64,000 bases of DNA from Rhodobacteraceae bacterium NBU2976 (GTDB taxonomy: Bacteria > Pseudomonadota > Alphaproteobacteria > Rhodobacterales > Rhodobacteraceae): positions 1,302,001 through 1,366,000 of the forward strand of contig JALPRQ010000001.1 of assembly GCA_023630215.1 (NCBI GenBank), given 5' to 3'. Below are positions 3,574-17,490 of this stretch, piece after piece. A model generated the notes under the pieces. The model had not been told where the DNA came from. It did not search any database and saw nothing but the letters and a program-made list of their open reading frames with translations. Numbering within the stretch: position 1 is the stretch's first letter; each line of letters starts with the position of its first letter. The position numbers and the translations under genes are program-made.

Positions 3574-4002
3574 ATGACTAGTGTTTTTAAGCTACGCGAT
3601 CTTGCGTCAAAATCCATCAATATGAAAGAAGTCGGGCGGACCGGCTCGGTCGGGCTGGTTGGTCCTGACGGCGATATCGACGACTTTCCGACGCCGATCA
3701 CTCCGTATATCGCGGTCGCGAAATACCGGGCCAAGATCGACTATCTTGACCATTTCAAAGGTCGTGTTGATGAACTTCAGCTGGAAGCGCTCGACAATAC
3801 CGCGCTTGATATCGGGCGGGCGGTTGTTGGTGCCAAATTCACCGGCACGGCGCTTTGTTCCGTTGACATGCCGACCTGCGCGCAAAATGCCCGGATTTCG
3901 CCGGTCGCGAGTTTCGGAGACTCGCTGACCAATATCGACCTGGCAGTTCTGCGGGCCGATCTGGAGCAGGTCATCAAGCATATCGACAAGCTTGAGTATT
4001 AA
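3574..4002 (+). CDS. 142-aa protein, candidate RiPP precursor
   Basis: It has no recognised family. It begins after a very strong ribosome site (AAGGGGG) and ends 5 bases before the HopA1/lyase-like gene, so the two are almost certainly co-transcribed. The N-terminal ~80 residues are acidic and leader-like (GPDGDIDDFPTPITPYIAV, then a helix-prone segment to residue 80). The only two cysteines, C95 and C102, lie in a Ser/Thr-containing stretch (FTGTALCSVDMPTCAQ), followed by several Ser/Thr (S109, S113, S117, T119) and a charged helical tail. That makes it the obvious substrate candidate for the downstream kinase-LanC enzyme. However, it is long for a lanthipeptide precursor and the cysteines are not at the extreme C-terminus. 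It might instead be an accessory or carrier protein. Confidence 0.55.
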   Translation: MTSVFKLRDLASKSINMKEVGRTGSVGLVGPDGDIDDFPTPITPYIAVAKYRAKIDYLDHFKGRVDELQLEALDNTALDIGRAVVGAKFTGTALCSVDMPTCAQNARISPVASFGDSLTNIDLAVLRADLEQVIKHIDKLEY

Positions 4003-4007
4003 GGGTC

Positions 4008-4739
4008 ATGCTCTCAACGGTGAGGCATAATACAACGGTTGAGGCGGCACCTGCTGCCTCAACAGCTTCTGTGTCGGAAGCGGTGATCGCGCTGGCCGCC
4101 GTCACGCGATTTTCCGACGAACAGGATTGTTTCCGCTGGCTCTATAATTACGGTGCCGAGCCGTTGACACGTGCCCGGGTGCAAAGTGATCCGGTTATCA
4201 ATCTGGAACGTGCATTAGCATTGGAAACGCATTCCAAACGCCACCTGACCGAGGCCTGGGACAATTGGATAAAGACTTCGGAAAACGCCGTTCAACCGCG
4301 CTATAAGCTGTATATCAGCCCCGAGTATGATCAGCTTGATCACTGTTTTGACAGCCTGTCCCCCTATCTTGCCGACCCAGCGGTTTCCGCGCTCAAAATC
4401 GTGGCGAAACGCTGGATGGCGGTTCGGCCAGACAAATTCATCGTCTATTTTCATTCTGAAGCGGCGCGATCCGGGTGGGTTGCGAGAATCGCGCCCGCAA
4501 TTGGCGACATCGCCGCCAACCCTACCCCATTTACTTATCCTGTTACCCAAACCGGTATTCTGTCGTTTGCAACGGACCCGCTGTCGGACAGACCGGCAAG
4601 CTGGCGTTCGGAAACAGCGCGGGTCATAGCGGGGCTGATCATTGCTGCGCAAGGGGCGAAGCAATCACCGGATCAGATCATCGCCAGCATTCATTTCGGT
4701 TTATCCGCGCGTGATATCGACGTGGAAAACTGGTGCTAA
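4008..4739 (+). CDS. HopA1/LanKC-lyase-like protein, putative RiPP phospho-lyase
   Basis: 243 aa. The N-terminal ~95 residues are helical. The C-terminal part has a pattern I associate with HopA1-family and SpvC/LanKC-lyase-like proteins: YKLYISPEYDQL (99-110), a lysine in SALKIV (K130), RPDKFIVYF (140-148), a GILSFATDP segment (183-191) and SWRSETARVIAGLI (198-211). In class V lanthipeptide systems such as lexapeptide, a HopA1-like partner works with a separate kinase to form dehydro-amino acids by phosphate elimination. That role is inferred here from its position between the candidate precursor and the kinase-LanC protein. The family assignment rests on motif resemblance and should be tested. 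Confidence 0.5.
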   Translation: MLSTVRHNTTVEAAPAASTASVSEAVIALAAVTRFSDEQDCFRWLYNYGAEPLTRARVQSDPVINLERALALETHSKRHLTEAWDNWIKTSENAVQPRYKLYISPEYDQLDHCFDSLSPYLADPAVSALKIVAKRWMAVRPDKFIVYFHSEAARSGWVARIAPAIGDIAANPTPFTYPVTQTGILSFATDPLSDRPASWRSETARVIAGLIIAAQGAKQSPDQIIASIHFGLSARDIDVENWC

Positions 4740-4756
4740 CGAACGGGACCAAGACG

Positions 4757-6976
4757 ATGCAAACACAATCCCCCAAAATGATCATGGCGCCCGACATTGT
4801 GTTCATGGACGCCGCTGATGTTTTCCCTGCTGATGCTGGCCCCGGCGATATGGTCATTGACCGGCCCAAACAACGGCTGCAATCGAAACTGATTTGTCCG
4901 GCGACATCGGCGTTGTTGGGGCAGTTTTCCCAACCGATCTCGATTCCCGAAGCGATCGTCAGATATGCGCGTGACACGGGCGGGGATGCAACGGATTTGC
5001 TGGAGGTCGCCTTTCCGGTGCTGCAATCGTTGGTCGATGACAGATTCTTGCTGCCCGCCGATGCAGAACTGCCGGTGGAACCCCAAGCGCGGCTGGCTGT
5101 TGGGCAGACAATCGCCGGATATCGGATTTTGCGCACCGTGCGGATCACCGACGATACCGAGGTGCATCTGGCAGAGGGCGACAGCGGTTTGGCGTCGTTA
5201 AAAACCCTGACAGTCGGACAACACGCGGCTGCATTCCAGGATGAAATCGTGATTGCCAAGCGTCTGTCAGGCAAGCCGGGACCGATGGTTCGCGATGTGG
5301 CGATTACCGATGACATCCCGGTCCTGATCAGCGACTGGATCAGTTCGGTGGATGCCGAAACATATGCCCAATCCCTTCGCAATGGATCGCGACAGGCGCT
5401 TTTGCGGTTTCTGGTCAGGATCGTGCGGGCATTTGCTGACATTCATGGTGCGGGTCTCGTCCACGGGGATATTCGCGCCAACAATATTCTGGTGGACAGG
5501 TCTGGCGCAGTCCATGTGATAGATTTCGGTCTGTCGTCAGCCGAGGGGGACTTAAAAAGATGTTTCGAATTTTCAGTGATGGAACCCGAAGCCGCTGCCG
5601 ATTTTCGGGTGGAAAGGGGTCATGCGCAAACCATGAGCGGGGAACAGTTTGCGCTGGCCGCGTTGCTCTATATGCTGGCGTCGGGTAAAGAGCCGCGCGA
5701 AATTCCGGCGATGCGGACAGAGGCCTTGGCCCATCTGTCCACTGCCAGCTTCCGGTCATTTGCCGAACAGGGCGTGACACCATGGCCCGCGCTGGAACAG
5801 GTTTTGCATAAAGCCGCCGCGCTGGACCCGTCGGCGCGATTTGCCGATCTGACAGAATTTGCGACGGCGTTGGATGCCATCGCCGCACCTGCCACGGTGG
5901 CAGACACCGCGATCCCTGACATTTCAAACGCCGATTTGTGCAATATCGCGTTGGACCGCGCTGACCTTCACGGCGGGATGCTTGGCCCCGCATGGGTCGC
6001 CTATCGCCGCGCGGTGCTGACGGGTGACGCTGAGGCGATGCGGGCGGCGGATCACATCCTGCGAAAACTGGACCGGAGTGATTTTCGGGATATACCCTTT
6101 GGCTCGCCCCTACATGATTATCGCGGGCTGTTGATCCTGCGGGCGCGGGTTGCCTATCTGCGTCATGACGTGGCGGCGGCGCGAACGGTTTTGGACGAGC
6201 TGACAGCGCTGATTTGCACGCCGTGCGAAAAGACAGAACTGTTCGGCGGTTCGGCCGGGATGCTGGCAGCGCTGGCCGCGTTTGTCGAGGATTACCAGAT
6301 CTATGATGCGCGTATTGACGCTCTCCGCCAGCCGCTTGCGACGTTGCTGGAAACGCATGTCGGCGCTGTCCGGTCGTTGCTGGTGGATATGTCAGCCGGG
6401 CGCGCTGCGCATTTGGGGATGGCGCATGGTTTGGTGGGGCTGACTTATGCTTGCCTGCGGGCCGCGACCGTGCTGGAATGCCCGATAGACCCCGCCGTCA
6501 CGGATGTGTTGGCGGTGTTGCAATCCCAAGCCGTTCCGATGGGACGTGGCGTCGCTTGGCCCGGCACGCTGAACGCTGGGGCTGATGATCCGGTCACCGT
6601 TGATTTTGCGCCCGGTTGGTGTAGCGGAACGGCGGGTTACGTTTATCTGTGGCTGGCGGCCTATTGTGCGACGGGGTTGGATGAATACCTGCAACTTGCT
6701 GAAAGGGCGGGGTATTATACTGCGGACCACCCTGGAACGGAGTCGAATATCTGCTGTGGACTGGCGGGCCGCGCGTTGTCTCTTTGTCATTTGACAGCCT
6801 ATTCGAGCACCGAGAATTGGAGTAAGAACGCGCAGAGTTTGACTAAACATTCCGTACGAAACAGGCTGACGTTCGATGCCCCGGATGGCGCATTGTTTCG
6901 CGGATATCTTGGGTCGATCTACGCACTTCAGGAAGGGTGCTCTCCGAATGGCGCTACCCGTTTCCCTATGGTATAG
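4757..6976 (+). CDS. Protein kinase-LanC fusion, putative lanthipeptide synthetase
   Basis: 739 aa from the ATG at 4757; a GTG at 4733, overlapping the upstream stop, is the alternative. Residues ~40-100 form a small helical, PqqD/RRE-like region (ALLGQFSQPISIPEAIVRY, then a LxxLVDDRFLL end). Residues ~115-380 are a Ser/Thr-kinase-like domain with K149, HGDIRANN (H236, D238, N243) and DFG (256-258). Residues ~390-739 are a LanC-type cyclase with the GG-repeat helices (LFGGSAGML, 495-503; GMAHGLVGL, 554-562) and zinc ligands WCSG (C622) and CCG (C666, C667). CCG in place of CHG puts it with three-cysteine cyclases such as ProcM. The lyase domain of LanL/LanKC is missing and appears to be supplied by the preceding gene. 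It ends normally (LFRGYLGS...RFPMV). Confidence 0.75.
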   Translation: MQTQSPKMIMAPDIVFMDAADVFPADAGPGDMVIDRPKQRLQSKLICPATSALLGQFSQPISIPEAIVRYARDTGGDATDLLEVAFPVLQSLVDDRFLLPADAELPVEPQARLAVGQTIAGYRILRTVRITDDTEVHLAEGDSGLASLKTLTVGQHAAAFQDEIVIAKRLSGKPGPMVRDVAITDDIPVLISDWISSVDAETYAQSLRNGSRQALLRFLVRIVRAFADIHGAGLVHGDIRANNILVDRSGAVHVIDFGLSSAEGDLKRCFEFSVMEPEAAADFRVERGHAQTMSGEQFALAALLYMLASGKEPREIPAMRTEALAHLSTASFRSFAEQGVTPWPALEQVLHKAAALDPSARFADLTEFATALDAIAAPATVADTAIPDISNADLCNIALDRADLHGGMLGPAWVAYRRAVLTGDAEAMRAADHILRKLDRSDFRDIPFGSPLHDYRGLLILRARVAYLRHDVAAARTVLDELTALICTPCEKTELFGGSAGMLAALAAFVEDYQIYDARIDALRQPLATLLETHVGAVRSLLVDMSAGRAAHLGMAHGLVGLTYACLRAATVLECPIDPAVTDVLAVLQSQAVPMGRGVAWPGTLNAGADDPVTVDFAPGWCSGTAGYVYLWLAAYCATGLDEYLQLAERAGYYTADHPGTESNICCGLAGRALSLCHLTAYSSTENWSKNAQSLTKHSVRNRLTFDAPDGALFRGYLGSIYALQEGCSPNGATRFPMV

Positions 6977-6999: not shown

Positions 7000-7543
7000 C
7001 CAAACTGCCGAACCGTGACCCCCATCAATCCGGTCTGGAGGAGGCAGCGTGTGACGATCACCCTAACGAACGTCTGCCGCCCACAATTCTTGTTATCGTA
7101 GACGAACCGGCGTCAATTGTTGATGCGTCTTTGCGTTTGTCTATTATCAAACTGTAGAGAATGTCTCCGATAAGGTATAGGTGAACTTAATCGATATTAC
7201 CAGCGATCTTGCAACCGCCCGTAATATCTCTGATCGGATCATAGTCTTGCAGCAAAGGTATGTCGTTGAACTGGGTCCGACCCGACTGATCCTCGACGCG
7301 CCCGGGGATGATCCCATGGATCTCCGTTTTGCGCGTCACGCTGATGTGATCGTTGATGGTGATGTCGGCGCATTGCTCTATTCCACCCATCCGGAATGGG
7401 ACGAAAGCGAAAAGGATGTTCCTAAAACCGGTCAGGAACGGCGAACGGTGATCCATGTCGCAAAAATTTGGGTCGAGGGGGATGGTCGAAGGCTGACAGA
7501 AATGTCGAGCCGTTTCGGATTAACCCCGGAACCCAACAGTTAG
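7000..7543 (+). pseudogene. Oligopeptide/sugar-type ABC ATPase, C-terminal remnant
   Basis: Pieces of an Opp/Dpp-type ATPase occur in order but in three frames. NRDPHQ comes first (from about 7010), then the signature RQRVTI (about 7039), then Walker B and D-loop VDEPASIVDASLRLSI (about 7100-7150), a stop at 7155-7157, and finally SDLATARNISDRIIVL plus a C-terminal tail (7181-7543). The Walker A half is absent. It starts within about 30 bases of the end of the kinase-LanC gene and ends 29 bases before the convergent regulator gene. It is decayed and unrelated to RiPP export: the pattern is that of importers. Confidence 0.75.
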
Positions 7544-13019: not shown

Positions 13020-14636
13020 ATGAACGAACTATCTCCGATCATTGATGCACAGAAAGTCGGGGTCACTTTCAAGGTTGATGGCGGCCATGTCGAAGCCGTG
13101 CGTGACGTGTCCTTTAAACTGTTCCGGGGCAAAACCACGGCGCTGGTGGGCGAAAGCGGGTCGGGAAAATCCGTGACTGCCCGCGCGGTCATGCGGTTGC
13201 TATCCAAACGCGCGACGGTTTCGGATGCAACGCGCATTTACTACGAAGACAAAGATATGGCGCACCTGTCCCCGGGCGAAATGCGCCACCTGCGTGGCAA
13301 CCGGATTTCGATGATCTTTCAGGAACCGATGTCCTCGCTAAACCCGGTCTATCGGATCGGCTCGCAGTTGATCGAGGTGATCATGCTGCATCAGAAGCTG
13401 AATAAGAAAGATGCCTGGGCCCGCGCGATCGAGCTGTTGGAGGAGGTGCGCATCCCCGACCCCGAAGCAAGGATCAACCAGTATCCGCATCAACTGTCGG
13501 GCGGGCAACGGCAACGGGTGATGATCGCGATGGCGCTGGCCAACCGGCCTGATGTGCTGATTGCTGATGAGCCGACAACGGCGCTCGATGTGACGGTGCA
13601 GGCGGAAATCCTGCATCTGATCGACGATCTGAAGGAAAAATTCGGCATGGGTGTGATCCTGATCACCCATGATCTGACCGTCGTGCGCCAGTTCGCCGAT
13701 CAGGTTTACGTCATGCAACATGGCGAGGTTCGCGAAGAAGGTCCAACCGAGGAGGTCTTTTCCAACCCCCAGCATCCCTATACCAAACGGCTGCTGGCAT
13801 CTGATCCGAAAGGCGTCGCCAATCCGCTGGAAAACACCGGTGACAGGGTGTTGGACGGCAAGGGCGTGCGTGTGCAGTTCATGCTGCGCAAAGGCGGGGC
13901 CTTCCGGGGCAGTTACGTGCCCCTGATTGCCGTTGATGGGCTGGATATCCATGTCGAACGCGGTGAAACGCTGGGACTGGTTGGCGAAAGCGGCTCGGGG
14001 AAAACCACGTTTGGGATGGCGCTTCTGGGCCTGACCAGTGCGCAGGCAGGCGAGGTAACATTCCTTGGCGACCGGTTGGACGGGAAATCCAGGCGCGAGC
14101 TGAAACCCTATCGCAGTCGTATGCAGGTGGTGTTTCAGGACCCGTTTTCCTCGCTCAATCCTCGCATGTCGGTGCGTCAGATCATTGAAGAAGGTTTGAT
14201 CGTCAACGGCATCGGTGCGAATGCCAAAGATCGTTTTAACCGGGTGAAACAGGCGCTATTTGATGCCGGGCTGCCTGATACGATCACCTCGCGTTTCCCG
14301 CACGAATTTTCCGGCGGTCAGCGGCAACGTCTGGCCATCGCGCGGGCTATTGCGCTGGAGCCGGAATTTATCCTTTTGGATGAACCGACCTCTGCCTTGG
14401 ACCTGTCGGTCCAGGCACAAATCATCGAGCTGTTGCGAAAACTGCAGCGCGAAAAAGGACTTAGCTACCTGTTCATCAGCCACGATCTGAAAGTCGTTCG
14501 GGCATTGTGCCATCGCGTGATGGTCATGCAGAACGGCCAGATCGTAGAACAGGGACCGGTCAGCGAAGTCCTCGTAAACCCGAAAACCGACTATACGCGG
14601 CGATTGGTCCGCGCAGCATTCGAGATAACAACATGA
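13020..14636 (+). CDS. ABC transporter double ATP-binding protein (DppD-DppF fusion type)
   Basis: 538 aa from the ATG at 13020, preceded by GGGGGTGG; a GTG at 13014 is possible. There are two complete ATPase domains: GESGSGKS (44-51), LSGGQRQRV and LIADEPTTALD in the first half, then GESGSGKT, FSGGQRQRL and ILLDEPTSALD in the second. One polypeptide therefore powers the importer, instead of separate DppD and DppF subunits. Its stop overlaps the start of the first GH4 gene (ATGA), coupling transport to hydrolysis. Confidence 0.93.
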   Translation: MNELSPIIDAQKVGVTFKVDGGHVEAVRDVSFKLFRGKTTALVGESGSGKSVTARAVMRLLSKRATVSDATRIYYEDKDMAHLSPGEMRHLRGNRISMIFQEPMSSLNPVYRIGSQLIEVIMLHQKLNKKDAWARAIELLEEVRIPDPEARINQYPHQLSGGQRQRVMIAMALANRPDVLIADEPTTALDVTVQAEILHLIDDLKEKFGMGVILITHDLTVVRQFADQVYVMQHGEVREEGPTEEVFSNPQHPYTKRLLASDPKGVANPLENTGDRVLDGKGVRVQFMLRKGGAFRGSYVPLIAVDGLDIHVERGETLGLVGESGSGKTTFGMALLGLTSAQAGEVTFLGDRLDGKSRRELKPYRSRMQVVFQDPFSSLNPRMSVRQIIEEGLIVNGIGANAKDRFNRVKQALFDAGLPDTITSRFPHEFSGGQRQRLAIARAIALEPEFILLDEPTSALDLSVQAQIIELLRKLQREKGLSYLFISHDLKVVRALCHRVMVMQNGQIVEQGPVSEVLVNPKTDYTRRLVRAAFEITT

Positions 14637-15994
14637 CAACAGTGACTTTCATAGGTGCGGGCAGCACCGTATTCGCCAAAAATCTTGCCGGGGATATCCT
14701 GTCGCGCGACAGCATGCGCGATGCCACGATCCGCCTGATGGATATTAATCCGCAGCGGTTGGAAGAATCCGAAATCGTGGTGGGCAAAATGGCCGCCACG
14801 CTGGGCGGCGGGGCAAAGGTTGAAACCTATACCGATCAACGCCGTGCCCTTGACGGCGCCGATTTTGTCGTCGTCTGTTTCCAGATCGGCGGATACGATC
14901 CCTGCACGGTGACGGATTTCGAGGTGCCCAAAACCTTCGGCCTGCGCCAGACCATCGCCGATACGCTCGGCATTGGCGGCATCATGCGTGGCATCCGCAC
15001 CGTCCCGCACCTCTGGTCCATCTGCGAGGATATGCAACAGGTCTGCCCGAACGCGATCATGCTCCAATATGTGAACCCCATGGCCATCAACACCTGGGCG
15101 ATTGGCGCGAAATATCCCGACATCAAACAGGTTGGCCTTTGTCACTCCGTTCAGGGCACGGCGGGGGAACTCGCCCGTGATCTGGACATCCCGGTCGAGG
15201 AAATCCGCTATACCTGCGGCGGCATCAATCACATGGCGTTTTATAAAACCTTTGAACACCGCCAGCCCGATGGCAGTTACAAGGACCTGTATCCCGCACT
15301 TCGTCAGGGCTATCTGGAGGGGCGCATTCCCAAGCCCTCAACCTGGAACCCGCGCTGCCCGAACAAGGTGCGCTATGAAATGATGATGCGGCTTGGATAT
15401 TTCGTCACCGAAAGTTCCGAACATTTCGCCGAATATGTGCCATGGTTCATTAAACGCGATCGCCCGGACCTGATCGAGAAATTCGGCATTCCGCTCGATG
15501 AATACCCCAAACGCTGCGTCGAGCAGATCGCACGTTGGGAACGCGAGGCCGCAGAATATCGCGCCGCGAACGAGGTCACGGTAAAACCGACCCATGAATA
15601 TGCCTCTGATATTGTCAATTCGGTGGTTACCGGCCAGCCCTCGGTGATCTATGGCAATATCCGCAACGCCGGATATATCCCGCAACTTCCCGAAGGTTGC
15701 GCCGTCGAAGTGCCGATCATGGTTGACGCCAACGGTCTGCAACCGACCGTGGTTCACGACATACCACCGCAACTGATCGCGCTGATGCGCACCAATATCA
15801 ACGTGCAGGACCTGACGGTTCAGGCGCTCTTGACCGAAAATCCGGACCATATCTATCACGCTGCAATGTTTGATCCGCACACGGCGGCCGAGCTGGATCT
15901 GGACCAGATTTGGGACCTGACCACCGACCTTCTGGCCGCGCATGGCGACTGGTTGCCGGAATGGGCACGTGTGAAGGACCGTAAATCGGCATGA
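14633..15994 (+). CDS. GH4 family glycosidase, alpha-galactosidase-like
   Basis: 453 aa. GH4 enzymes use NAD+ and a divalent metal and cleave by oxidation-elimination. Visible features are the N-terminal nucleotide-binding loop TFIGAGSTVFAKN, NPMAINTWA, the metal-ligand cysteine in GLCHSVQGT and the histidine in CGGINHMAFY. It resembles MelA more than the 6-phospho-glycosidases, which fits an ABC rather than a PTS uptake route. The open frame extends upstream to 14507, but ATG 14633, overlapping the ATPase stop, gives the family N-terminus. It is likely cytoplasmic. Confidence 0.88.
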   Translation: MTTVTFIGAGSTVFAKNLAGDILSRDSMRDATIRLMDINPQRLEESEIVVGKMAATLGGGAKVETYTDQRRALDGADFVVVCFQIGGYDPCTVTDFEVPKTFGLRQTIADTLGIGGIMRGIRTVPHLWSICEDMQQVCPNAIMLQYVNPMAINTWAIGAKYPDIKQVGLCHSVQGTAGELARDLDIPVEEIRYTCGGINHMAFYKTFEHRQPDGSYKDLYPALRQGYLEGRIPKPSTWNPRCPNKVRYEMMMRLGYFVTESSEHFAEYVPWFIKRDRPDLIEKFGIPLDEYPKRCVEQIARWEREAAEYRAANEVTVKPTHEYASDIVNSVVTGQPSVIYGNIRNAGYIPQLPEGCAVEVPIMVDANGLQPTVVHDIPPQLIALMRTNINVQDLTVQALLTENPDHIYHAAMFDPHTAAELDLDQIWDLTTDLLAAHGDWLPEWARVKDRKSA

Positions 15995-17490
15995 CCCAAA
16001 AGATCGTCATCGTTGGCGGGGGAACGGCGGGTTGGCTCGCGGCGTTGATCCTTGGCGATGCCAAGGCGCGCCCGGCCGGGCATCCCGCCCCCGACATCAC
16101 GGTGATCGAAAGCAGCAAGATCGGCACCATCGGCGTTGGCGAGGGCACAACCGCCATCTTTCGCCAGATGCTCCAGCATTTTGGCATAGATGAACGCGCC
16201 TTTTTGGCTGCGACCGGCGCTACAATCAAATACGGCATCCGGCACCGCGACTGGCGCCGGATCGGGCATCATTACGATGGCCCGATTGACGATGTCGAGG
16301 CCGTGGCCGGTCAGGGGATCGACCTCTATGCCCTTGCCGCAGACAAACCGCTTGCTGATGCACACCTGTTCCAGCACCTGATGAACCGCAGCCGCGCCCC
16401 AGTCGCCGCACGCAATCATCGCGAGGTCCCGGCCGGCCCCTATCACCACGCCTACCATTTCGACCAGTCGCTTGCCGGTGCATTCCTGAAATCGCAGGCA
16501 CCCGGGGTGACGCTGATCGACGATCAGGTGCAGTCGGTCAATCGCGACGCTCTAAGCGGTGACATCACCTCGCTGGGTCTGGAAAGCGGGCAGGAGGTGA
16601 CGGGGGACATTTACCTTGACTGCACCGGATTCCGCCGCGCCCTGATCGGCCCGTTGGGGGCCAATTGGGTCAGCTACGGCGATATCCTTCCGGTCAACCG
16701 CGCCATGCCCTTTTGGGTTGACCTCAATCCGGACGAGGAGATCGACCCCTTCACCCTCGCCTGGGCGCAGCAAAACGGCTGGATGTGGCGCATCCCGACG
16801 CAGGGCCGCTATGGCTGTGGCTATGTCTATTCTGACGCCCATACCAGCCCCGACGCTGCGCAGGCGGAAATCGAAACGGCGCTTGGCCATGCGATTGAAC
16901 CGCGCAACGATATCCGAATTGATGCCGGTCGTCTGGACAATGCCTGGCTGCATAATTGCATCGCTGTTGGCCTGTCCTCGTCATTTCTGGAACCGCTCGA
17001 AGCGACCTCGATCCATGGCACGATTGTGCAACTGATGTGGCTGGCCCGCTGGCTGTCCGACGCCAAAGGGCGGGACCTCCATAACGCCGCTGTCGCCCGT
17101 CAGGTCGATGATTTCCGCGATTTCATCCGCATCCACTATGTTAGCGAACGCCGTGACAGCGCGTTTTGGTGCGATGTTGCCGCAACGCATCCGCAATCCG
17201 TGCAGGATCGGCTGGCACATTGGGCGCAAAAACTGCCGGACCGTAGTGATTTTAACGATTTCCCCGGTGACCTGCCGCATGTGCAGGAACAGCTTTACCG
17301 CCCGGTTCTGGATGGTCTGGGGCTGCTGAACCGACAACAGGCCAAGCAGGTGCTGGCCCGCGATCCCAAACGCCGCGCCGCCTTGCGCAAGGCGCATGGA
17401 CAATTGACCAAGGACTATAAACGCGCGGCGGGGCAATGCCTGCCTCATCGCGCCTGGCTAAATTCACTTCAACAGGACCAAGCACTATGA
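15991..17490 (+). CDS. Flavin-dependent halogenase-like protein (tryptophan halogenase family)
   Basis: 499 aa. The FAD-binding GGGTAGWLAA is at residues 8-17, an IGVGEGTT block follows, and the halogenase hallmark WMWRIP lies near residue 263. A SSFLEPLEATSIHG block follows around residue 330, also typical. Family members chlorinate or brominate aromatic substrates with FADH2, but many homologues sit in sugar-utilisation loci where no halogenation is known. Here it overlaps both neighbours by ATGA and lies between two GH4 genes, so it is expressed with sugar catabolism. I did not assign the catalytic lysine with certainty, and no flavin reductase gene is nearby. The substrate is unknown. Confidence 0.85.
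   Translation: MTQKIVIVGGGTAGWLAALILGDAKARPAGHPAPDITVIESSKIGTIGVGEGTTAIFRQMLQHFGIDERAFLAATGATIKYGIRHRDWRRIGHHYDGPIDDVEAVAGQGIDLYALAADKPLADAHLFQHLMNRSRAPVAARNHREVPAGPYHHAYHFDQSLAGAFLKSQAPGVTLIDDQVQSVNRDALSGDITSLGLESGQEVTGDIYLDCTGFRRALIGPLGANWVSYGDILPVNRAMPFWVDLNPDEEIDPFTLAWAQQNGWMWRIPTQGRYGCGYVYSDAHTSPDAAQAEIETALGHAIEPRNDIRIDAGRLDNAWLHNCIAVGLSSSFLEPLEATSIHGTIVQLMWLARWLSDAKGRDLHNAAVARQVDDFRDFIRIHYVSERRDSAFWCDVAATHPQSVQDRLAHWAQKLPDRSDFNDFPGDLPHVQEQLYRPVLDGLGLLNRQQAKQVLARDPKRRAALRKAHGQLTKDYKRAAGQCLPHRAWLNSLQQDQAL

What the first reader, a model, noticed from the sequence alone, without database searches (positions are those of the whole stretch)
3574..6976. Compact RiPP-like unit: candidate precursor, HopA1/lyase-like protein and kinase-LanC fusion in a Rhodobacterales chromosome
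Three tightly spaced genes combine a kinase fused to a LanC cyclase (no lyase domain) with a separate HopA1/lyase-like protein and a small two-cysteine protein. Class III/IV lanthipeptide synthetases keep lyase, kinase and cyclase in one chain; class V systems (such as lexapeptide) split kinase, HopA1-like partner and cyclase. Here the kinase and cyclase are fused and the partner is separate, an intermediate layout I do not recall being described for this group. Domain content is seen; the chemistry is inferred.
Basis: partly seen in the sequence, partly recalled or inferred. Interest (0 to 1): 0.85.

Follow-up and report, generated by a model that had tools for sequence, protein, structure and literature searches.

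The report
Split-lyase lanthipeptide-type gene cassette
Three adjacent genes encode a small cysteine-containing protein and two enzymes that together carry the kinase, lyase and ring-closing parts of a peptide-stapling machine, arranged across two proteins in a way not described in the literature I could search, and the same cassette recurs in about eight phyla.

Summary
The three genes are real, operon-like and at the stated coordinates. The third (4757-6976) encodes a PqqD/RRE-like N-terminal domain, a protein kinase with all catalytic residues, and a LanC domain with an intact Cys-Cys-Cys zinc site, but no lyase. The second (4008-4739) matches no Pfam family, HopA1 included. [quoted passage not shown] The first (3574-4002) is a two-cysteine candidate precursor. 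Homologues from about eight phyla (22 partners, 20 kinase-cyclases aligned) repeat the order precursor, partner, kinase-cyclase, and the two enzymes co-vary (Mantel p = 2e-4). Precursors share an N-terminal F-x-x-[KR]-[DE]-L motif, a mid-chain Cys/Ser/Thr core and a Cys-free helical tail. Best reading: a lanthipeptide-type synthetase with the lyase supplied in trans, a mosaic of class IV-like kinase-cyclase and class V-like lyase. It fails a defining feature of each of classes III-VI. No prior description was found in the library held. The chemistry is inferred; no product has been tested.

The parts
3574..4002 (+). Candidate precursor, 142 aa, two Cys (C95, C102)
   Evidence: ORF directly upstream of the lyase-like gene (5-nt gap); a 62%-identical orthologue sits in the same place in genome G430; other Cys-rich small proteins hold the same position in the other loci
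3586..3606 (+). Leader-like motif FKLRDLA (residues 5-11)
   Evidence: An F/Y-x-x-[KR]-[DE]-L-type motif at residues 3-5 (or repeated internally) in 18 of 23 family precursors
3829..3915 (+). Presumed core region (residues 86-114, GAKFTGTALCSVDMPTCAQNARISPVASF)
   Evidence: Residues 81-114 are 85% identical to the G430 orthologue versus 50-57% elsewhere; both Cys and T92 kept, S96 replaced by Thr
3916..3999 (+). Cys-free, helix-prone C-terminal tail (residues 115-142), possible follower
   Evidence: All 23 family precursors have a Cys-free tail of at least 35 aa
4008..4739 (+). HopA1/LanY-fold phospho-Ser/Thr lyase partner, 243 aa; lacks the roughly 140-aa N-terminal domain of most homologues
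   Evidence: AlphaFold model pLDDT 79; Foldseek vs PDB best 4rsx HopA1 4.3e-5, LxmY 4.7e-4, then SpvC/OspF/ThurKC/CuvL; K100, Y102, K130, R140, D142, K143, Y147 invariant in 22 sequences
4757..6976 (+). RRE-like domain - protein kinase - LanC cyclase fusion, 739 aa
   Evidence: Pfam Pkinase and LANC_like; AlphaFold model pLDDT 81.5
4835..5065 (+). PqqD/RRE-like N-terminal domain (residues 27-103)
   Evidence: hhalign to PqqD probability 85%, 30 column-shuffled decoys at most 0.6%, reversed PqqD 0.2%
5108..5911 (+). Kinase domain (residues about 118-385)
   Evidence: K149, E163, D238, N243, D256 identical in 20/20 family members; PknB-type fold
5966..6928 (+). LanC cyclase domain (residues 404-724); zinc-site Cys C622, C666, C667 and conserved H557
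   Evidence: PF05147 1e-18, profile 7-334 of 350; H557, C622, C666, C667 identical in 20/20

Best explanation
The locus is a minimal lanthipeptide-type RiPP cassette with its synthetase split over two chains. The RRE-like domain of the kinase-cyclase binds the N-terminal F-x-x-R-D-L motif of the 142-aa precursor (inferred). Its kinase phosphorylates Ser/Thr in the mid-chain core (T92 and S96 are candidates, inferred). The separate HopA1/LanY-fold protein removes the phosphate by beta-elimination, using K130 as base with K100, R140 and Y147, to give dehydroalanine/dehydrobutyrine (fold and residues shown, reaction inferred). The LanC domain, with a Cys3 zinc site, adds C95 and C102 across those residues to form thioether rings (zinc residues shown, ring formation inferred). 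The two enzymes probably work as a complex, as LxmK-LxmY and CaoK-CaoY do. The product and its use are unknown; there is no dedicated protease or exporter beside it.
For: Kinase catalytic residues and LanC zinc residues invariant in 20/20 family members, lyase residues in 22/22. Predicted lyase fold with HopA1, LxmY, SpvC, OspF, ThurKC, SalKC and CuvL as top PDB hits. Spacing K100-30-K130-10-R140-7-Y147 against CaoY R187-32-K219-10-R229-7-Y236, where R187, K219 and R229 were mutated (PMC9486802). PqqD-like N-domain. Same three genes across phyla. Mirror-tree r = 0.82, p = 2e-4. In 395 genomes of the order, full-length kinase-cyclase occurs only in two, both of which also have the partner. Multi-unit precursors with repeated cores in Paenibacillus, Chitinophagales and others.
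Against: No sequence-level match of the partner to any lyase family. The partner lacks the catalytic His of OspF/SpvC (Tyr at that position, by spacing), although class V LanY also lacks it. No protease, transporter or immunity gene is adjacent in the window. The core is the most conserved part of the precursor, which is unusual for a RiPP. No typical glycine-rich loop is evident in the kinase family. Foldseek TM-scores are modest (at most 0.52).
Confidence: 0.77

Rival explanations
1. It is an ordinary class V lanthipeptide system (LanK, LanY, LanC) in which kinase and cyclase happen to be fused.
For: The partner's best fold matches are HopA1 and LxmY, and the residue pattern matches CaoY. 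Class V clusters with a LanC cyclase are known (cited in PMC10676316).
Against: The kinase is a PF00069-type enzyme scoring best on the class IV LanL model (2e-30), whereas class V LanK is APH-type PF01636, which gives only 8e-4 here, below its cut-off. PF17914 is not matched. The precursors carry mid-chain cores with a C-terminal tail.
Confidence: 0.08
2. It is a class IV (LanL) synthetase whose N-terminal lyase was lost and replaced in trans by an unrelated HopA1-type protein.
For: All 16 tested kinase-cyclases match the LanL model, up to 4e-49, ahead of the LanKC and LanM models; the kinase-then-LanC order is the same.
Against: Scores are far below the LanL equivalog cut-off (105.8 versus 650 bits), the zinc motif is CCC rather than CCH, and an RRE-like domain occupies the N-terminus. 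This rival differs in ancestry more than in mechanism and cannot be excluded.
Confidence: 0.1
3. The enzymes modify or silence a protein target (kinase plus eliminylase plus LanC-like thiol addition, as in LanCL proteins) and the small upstream gene is a regulator or target, not a peptide precursor.
For: No exporter or protease is adjacent; the upstream protein is large (142 aa) with only two Cys and a conserved core. PDB sequence matches of the family profile include human LANCL1.
Against: Across phyla the upstream gene is Cys-rich, hypervariable and sometimes multi-unit with repeated Thr/Cys motifs, as expected of RiPP precursors. One locus (L024) has an ABC transporter between the two enzyme genes.
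Confidence: 0.05

Closest known systems
Class V lanthipeptide dehydratases (LxmK-LxmY, CaoK-CaoY) with optional LanC
   Same: Separate HopA1-fold lyase working with a kinase; conserved Lys/Arg/Tyr active-site pattern; His acid of OspF absent
   Different: There the kinase is a stand-alone APH-type protein and the cyclase is separate; here a PknB/LanL-type kinase is fused to LanC and to an RRE-like domain; the partner does not match PF17914
Class IV lanthipeptide synthetases (LanL, e.g. CuvL, VenL)
   Same: Ser/Thr kinase followed by a zinc-binding LanC domain in one chain
   Different: LanL carries its own N-terminal lyase; here that is absent and supplied in trans. Zinc motif CCC instead of CCH
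Class III synthetases (LanKC, e.g. ThurKC)
   Same: Kinase-cyclase order; lyase of the same fold
   Different: LanKC is one chain with a lyase and lacks zinc ligands; here zinc ligands are invariant
Class VI synthetases (LanKCb, Streptococcus)
   Same: Non-canonical domain layout around a kinase
   Different: Class VI is described as a synthetase with kinase and truncated cyclase and lyase domains (PMC10676316); here the cyclase is full-length and the lyase is a separate gene
ProcM-like LanM (class II, CCG zinc motif)
   Same: Cys-Cys-Cys zinc triad
   Different: LanM dehydratase domain is unrelated (lipid-kinase-like)

Membership tests
Class III/IV lanthipeptide synthetase | Lyase, kinase and cyclase in a single chain | tested here: not met
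   No lyase in the 739-aa chain; LanL 105.8 bits vs cut-off 650, LanKC 54.2 vs 575
Class IV (LanL) | LanC domain with zinc ligands (Cys-Cys-His) | tested here: inconclusive
   Zinc ligands present but as Cys-Cys-Cys in 20/20
Class V | APH-type kinase LanK (PF01636) | tested here: not met
   PF00069 is the significant kinase family (2.7e-11); PF01636 at 7.9e-4, 19.7 bits under its 23.2 cut-off
Class V | HopA1-family lyase LanY as separate protein (PF17914) | tested here: inconclusive
   Not matched by HMM; matched by predicted fold to HopA1 and LxmY
Class V | Catalytic residues of LanY (CaoY R187, K219, R229, Y236) | tested here: met
   K100, K130, R140, Y147 invariant in 22/22 with spacing 30/10/7 against 32/10/7; Lys replaces the first Arg
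Class V | Kinase, lyase and cyclase on separate chains | tested here: not met
   Kinase and cyclase are fused in every full-length family member
Class VI | Single chain with kinase and truncated lyase and cyclase | tested here: not met
   LANC_like covers profile positions 7-334 of 350 with all zinc residues; lyase is a separate gene
OspF/SpvC/HopA1 phosphothreonine lyase fold | Shared fold | tested here: met
   Ranks 1-23 of the PDB search are all members of this fold
OspF/SpvC phosphothreonine lyase | Catalytic His106 next to Lys104 | tested here: not met
   K-x-Y (K100, Y102) in 22/22; position inferred from spacing
RiPP cassette | Small precursor beside its modifying enzymes, with leader motif and variable core | tested here: met
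   Precursors in nearly all loci, motif in 18/23, hypervariable Cys/Ser/Thr cores
Lanthipeptide | (Methyl)lanthionine in the product | not testable with these tools
   Needs co-expression and mass spectrometry

The most novel reading that the evidence does not exclude
A further class of lanthipeptide synthetase: an RRE-kinase-cyclase fusion with a Cys3 zinc site plus a HopA1-fold lyase in trans, acting on cores held in mid-chain between an N-terminal leader and a C-terminal helical follower, widespread across phyla but hidden because the lyase matches no family model and kinase-plus-LanC proteins are sorted into class III/IV by existing mining rules.
Probability: 0.6. Interest if true: 0.82.

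Novelty: new variant of a known kind. Interest (0 to 1): 0.72.

Why it matters
It would add an unrecognised synthetase layout to the lanthipeptide classes and show that lyase, kinase and cyclase modules have been recombined more freely than the class scheme says. Published mining assigned any LanC protein with a PF00069 kinase domain to class III or IV (PMC7268733), so such cassettes may already be mis-sorted in surveys. Mid-chain cores with a helical tail would be an unusual substrate design. The question is directly testable with three short genes in E. coli.

Tried and rejected
Direct HMM evidence for HopA1: none in the window protein, 18 homologues, or 13 host genomes and plasmid records at the cut-off. 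Profile search of the partner against PDB sequences: nothing credible. PF17914 in 142 genomes of the class, to collect references: no hits. Phage or viral spread: none in IMG/VR with the partner patterns; phage records give kinase matches only. Defence-system reading: PADLOC hits are generic kinase matches only. Alignments of 4-5 divergent partners were too diverse for the collection scan. RRE in the partner's N-terminal domain: no match to PqqD, only weak similarity to the kinase-cyclase N-domain (28%). Same-genus synteny for an empty-site comparison: flanking genes only 32-39% identical in relatives, not pursued. A remnant of the kinase-cyclase beyond the IS in G430: none found. Literature: nine searches found no prior description; the library excludes most subscription papers, so absence there is weak evidence. 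No LanL/LanKC/LanK reference set was collected, so the ancestry question stays open.

Full report
OBSERVATION. Three + strand genes lie at 3574-4002, 4008-4739 and 4757-6976 with gaps of 5 and 17 nt. A GTG at 4733 would extend the third, but homologues align to the ATG at 4757. Pfam finds Pkinase (2.7e-11) and LANC_like (1e-18) in the third protein and nothing credible in the first two.

A FAMILY, NOT A SINGLETON. tblastn against plasmids found the second and third genes together in Paenibacillus peoriae and Cupriavidus oxalaticus. A scan of 84,980 genomes with the partner alignment returned 18 loci from Acidobacteriota, Chloroflexota (Dictyobacter), Eremiobacterota, Bacteroidota (Dyadobacter, Chitinophagales), Elusimicrobia, and MAGs labelled Mycobacterium, Gracilibacteria and Nitrososphaerales (MAG labels may be misbinned). 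In almost every locus the order is small gene, partner, kinase-cyclase. Exceptions: L003 has the kinase-cyclase on the other strand, and L024 has an ABC transporter between the enzyme genes and a broken partner. Two further genomes of the window's own family carry the cassette: G188 complete, and G430 with precursor and partner but an IS21-type element where the kinase-cyclase should start and no remnant of it nearby. In 395 genomes of the order only G000 and G188 have a full-length kinase-cyclase, and both have the partner. In most of the carrier genomes examined the kinase-cyclase is the only clear LanC protein. Pairwise distances of partner and kinase-cyclase correlate at r = 0.82 over 14 non-redundant loci (Mantel p = 2e-4).

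THE PARTNER IS A LYASE BY FOLD. No Pfam family of relevance matched any of 18 homologues at E<=0.1. An AlphaFold model built on 18 sequences (mean pLDDT 79) matched, in order, HopA1 (4rsx, 4.3e-5), LxmY of the lexapeptide dehydratase (9dk1-9dk3, 4.7e-4 to 1e-3), HopA1 4rsw, SpvC, OspF and VirA, and the lyase domains of ThurKC, SalKC and CuvL; the first other fold is rank 24 at E 0.17. In class V CaoY, R187, K219 and R229 were tested by mutagenesis and Y236 aligns with the SpvC tyrosine (PMC9486802). The window protein has K100, K130, R140 and Y147 at spacing 30/10/7 against 32/10/7, invariant in 22 sequences. The catalytic His of OspF/SpvC appears replaced by an invariant Tyr (K-x-Y); CaoY also lacks that His. 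The equivalences rest on spacing and fold, not on superposed coordinates.

THE KINASE-CYCLASE. K149, E163, D238, N243 and D256 of the kinase, and H557, C622, C666 and C667 of LanC, are identical in 20 of 20 members. The zinc motif is CCG, as in ProcM-like LanM, instead of CHG. The first 110 residues are modelled as short strands followed by three helices; profile comparison to PqqD, the RRE archetype, gives 85% probability, against at most 0.6% for 30 shuffled decoys. The same domain is fused to a 2OG-Fe(II) oxygenase in Cupriavidus, which fits a leader-binding role. NCBIfam scores put the chain nearest LanL but far below its cut-off.

THE PRECURSORS. Of 23 precursors, 18 carry an F/Y-x-x-[KR]-[DE]-L-type motif at the start (or repeated internally), and all 23 have a Cys-free, helix-prone tail of at least 35 residues, so the Cys/Ser/Thr core lies in mid-chain. 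Several are multi-unit: three units in Paenibacillus, two in L012, and repeated cores such as CTSCTHVT (L019) or TCKRTNDD (L023). No precursor matched a known family convincingly. In the window, residues 81-114 are 85% identical to the G430 orthologue against 50-57% elsewhere, with both Cys and T92 conserved and S96 replaced by Thr. Plausible rings are T92-C95 and S96-C102 (inference).

MECHANISM. Shown: domain content, residue conservation, predicted folds, linkage and co-variation. Inferred: leader binding by the RRE-like domain, phosphorylation, elimination in trans, thioether closure, and a two-enzyme complex by analogy with LxmKY (PMC12141560) and CaoKY.

COMPARISON. Class III/IV keep lyase, kinase and cyclase in one chain; class V uses a separate APH-type kinase, HopA1-type lyase and, where present, LanC; class VI is a single synthetase with kinase and truncated lyase and cyclase (PMC10676316; PMC12328550; PMC10604976). 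This family fails at least one defining feature of each, so it is not filed under any of them, but it very probably works like them. A 2014 study reported predicted clusters with stand-alone kinase and lyase (BLES03-like, PMC4159009), a further precedent for split layouts. A 2020 survey sorted any LanC protein with a PF00069 domain into class III/IV (PMC7268733), so members may already be counted there without the missing lyase being noticed; an L-CCC category of eight predicted peptides was also listed in PMC11251773. I found no paper describing this layout, but the library lacks most subscription journals.

VERDICT. A real, conserved and probably functional new layout of a known kind of enzyme system. 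Main weaknesses: no biochemical proof, no adjacent protease or exporter, and unresolved ancestry.

Noticed in passing
L003:10384-11406 (Cupriavidus oxalaticus plasmid): The RRE-like N-domain of the kinase-cyclase is also fused to a 2OG-Fe(II) oxygenase next to the cassette, and a 1054-aa LanB-like dehydratase gene (identified by eye only) follows at 13030-16194: a possible hybrid cluster.
   Followed up: partly
window 7030-7543: Frame-broken remnants resembling the C-terminal part of an oligopeptide-type ABC transporter ATPase (DEPASIVDASLRLSIIKL etc.) directly downstream of the cassette.
   Followed up: partly
L007:2640-5827 (G430): An IS21-type element sits where the kinase-cyclase gene should begin; precursor and partner remain, so this copy looks inactivated.
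   Followed up: yes
L024:157-5053: ABC exporter-like gene between the two enzyme genes in a MAG labelled Gracilibacteria; both enzyme genes appear broken in frame, and it is the only locus with an exporter inside the cassette.
   Followed up: no
L002:5840-6592; L012:7733-8470; L019:544-888; L023:9312-9938: Multi-unit precursors, either whole units with their own leader-like motif and core, or long tandem core repeats.
   Followed up: partly
window 4757-6976 and homologues, residues 125-150: The kinase family shows no obvious glycine-rich loop; instead D133 (20/20) and E135 (19/20) are conserved.
   Followed up: no
L008:10670-18835 (G188): The cassette lies beside a phage/plasmid-type primase-helicase-like gene and an integrase-like fragment, suggesting a mobile island (by eye only).
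   Followed up: no
window 4008-4739 and G430 partner: These two partners lack the roughly 140-aa N-terminal domain found in most homologues; that domain has weak profile similarity to the kinase-cyclase N-domain.
   Followed up: partly
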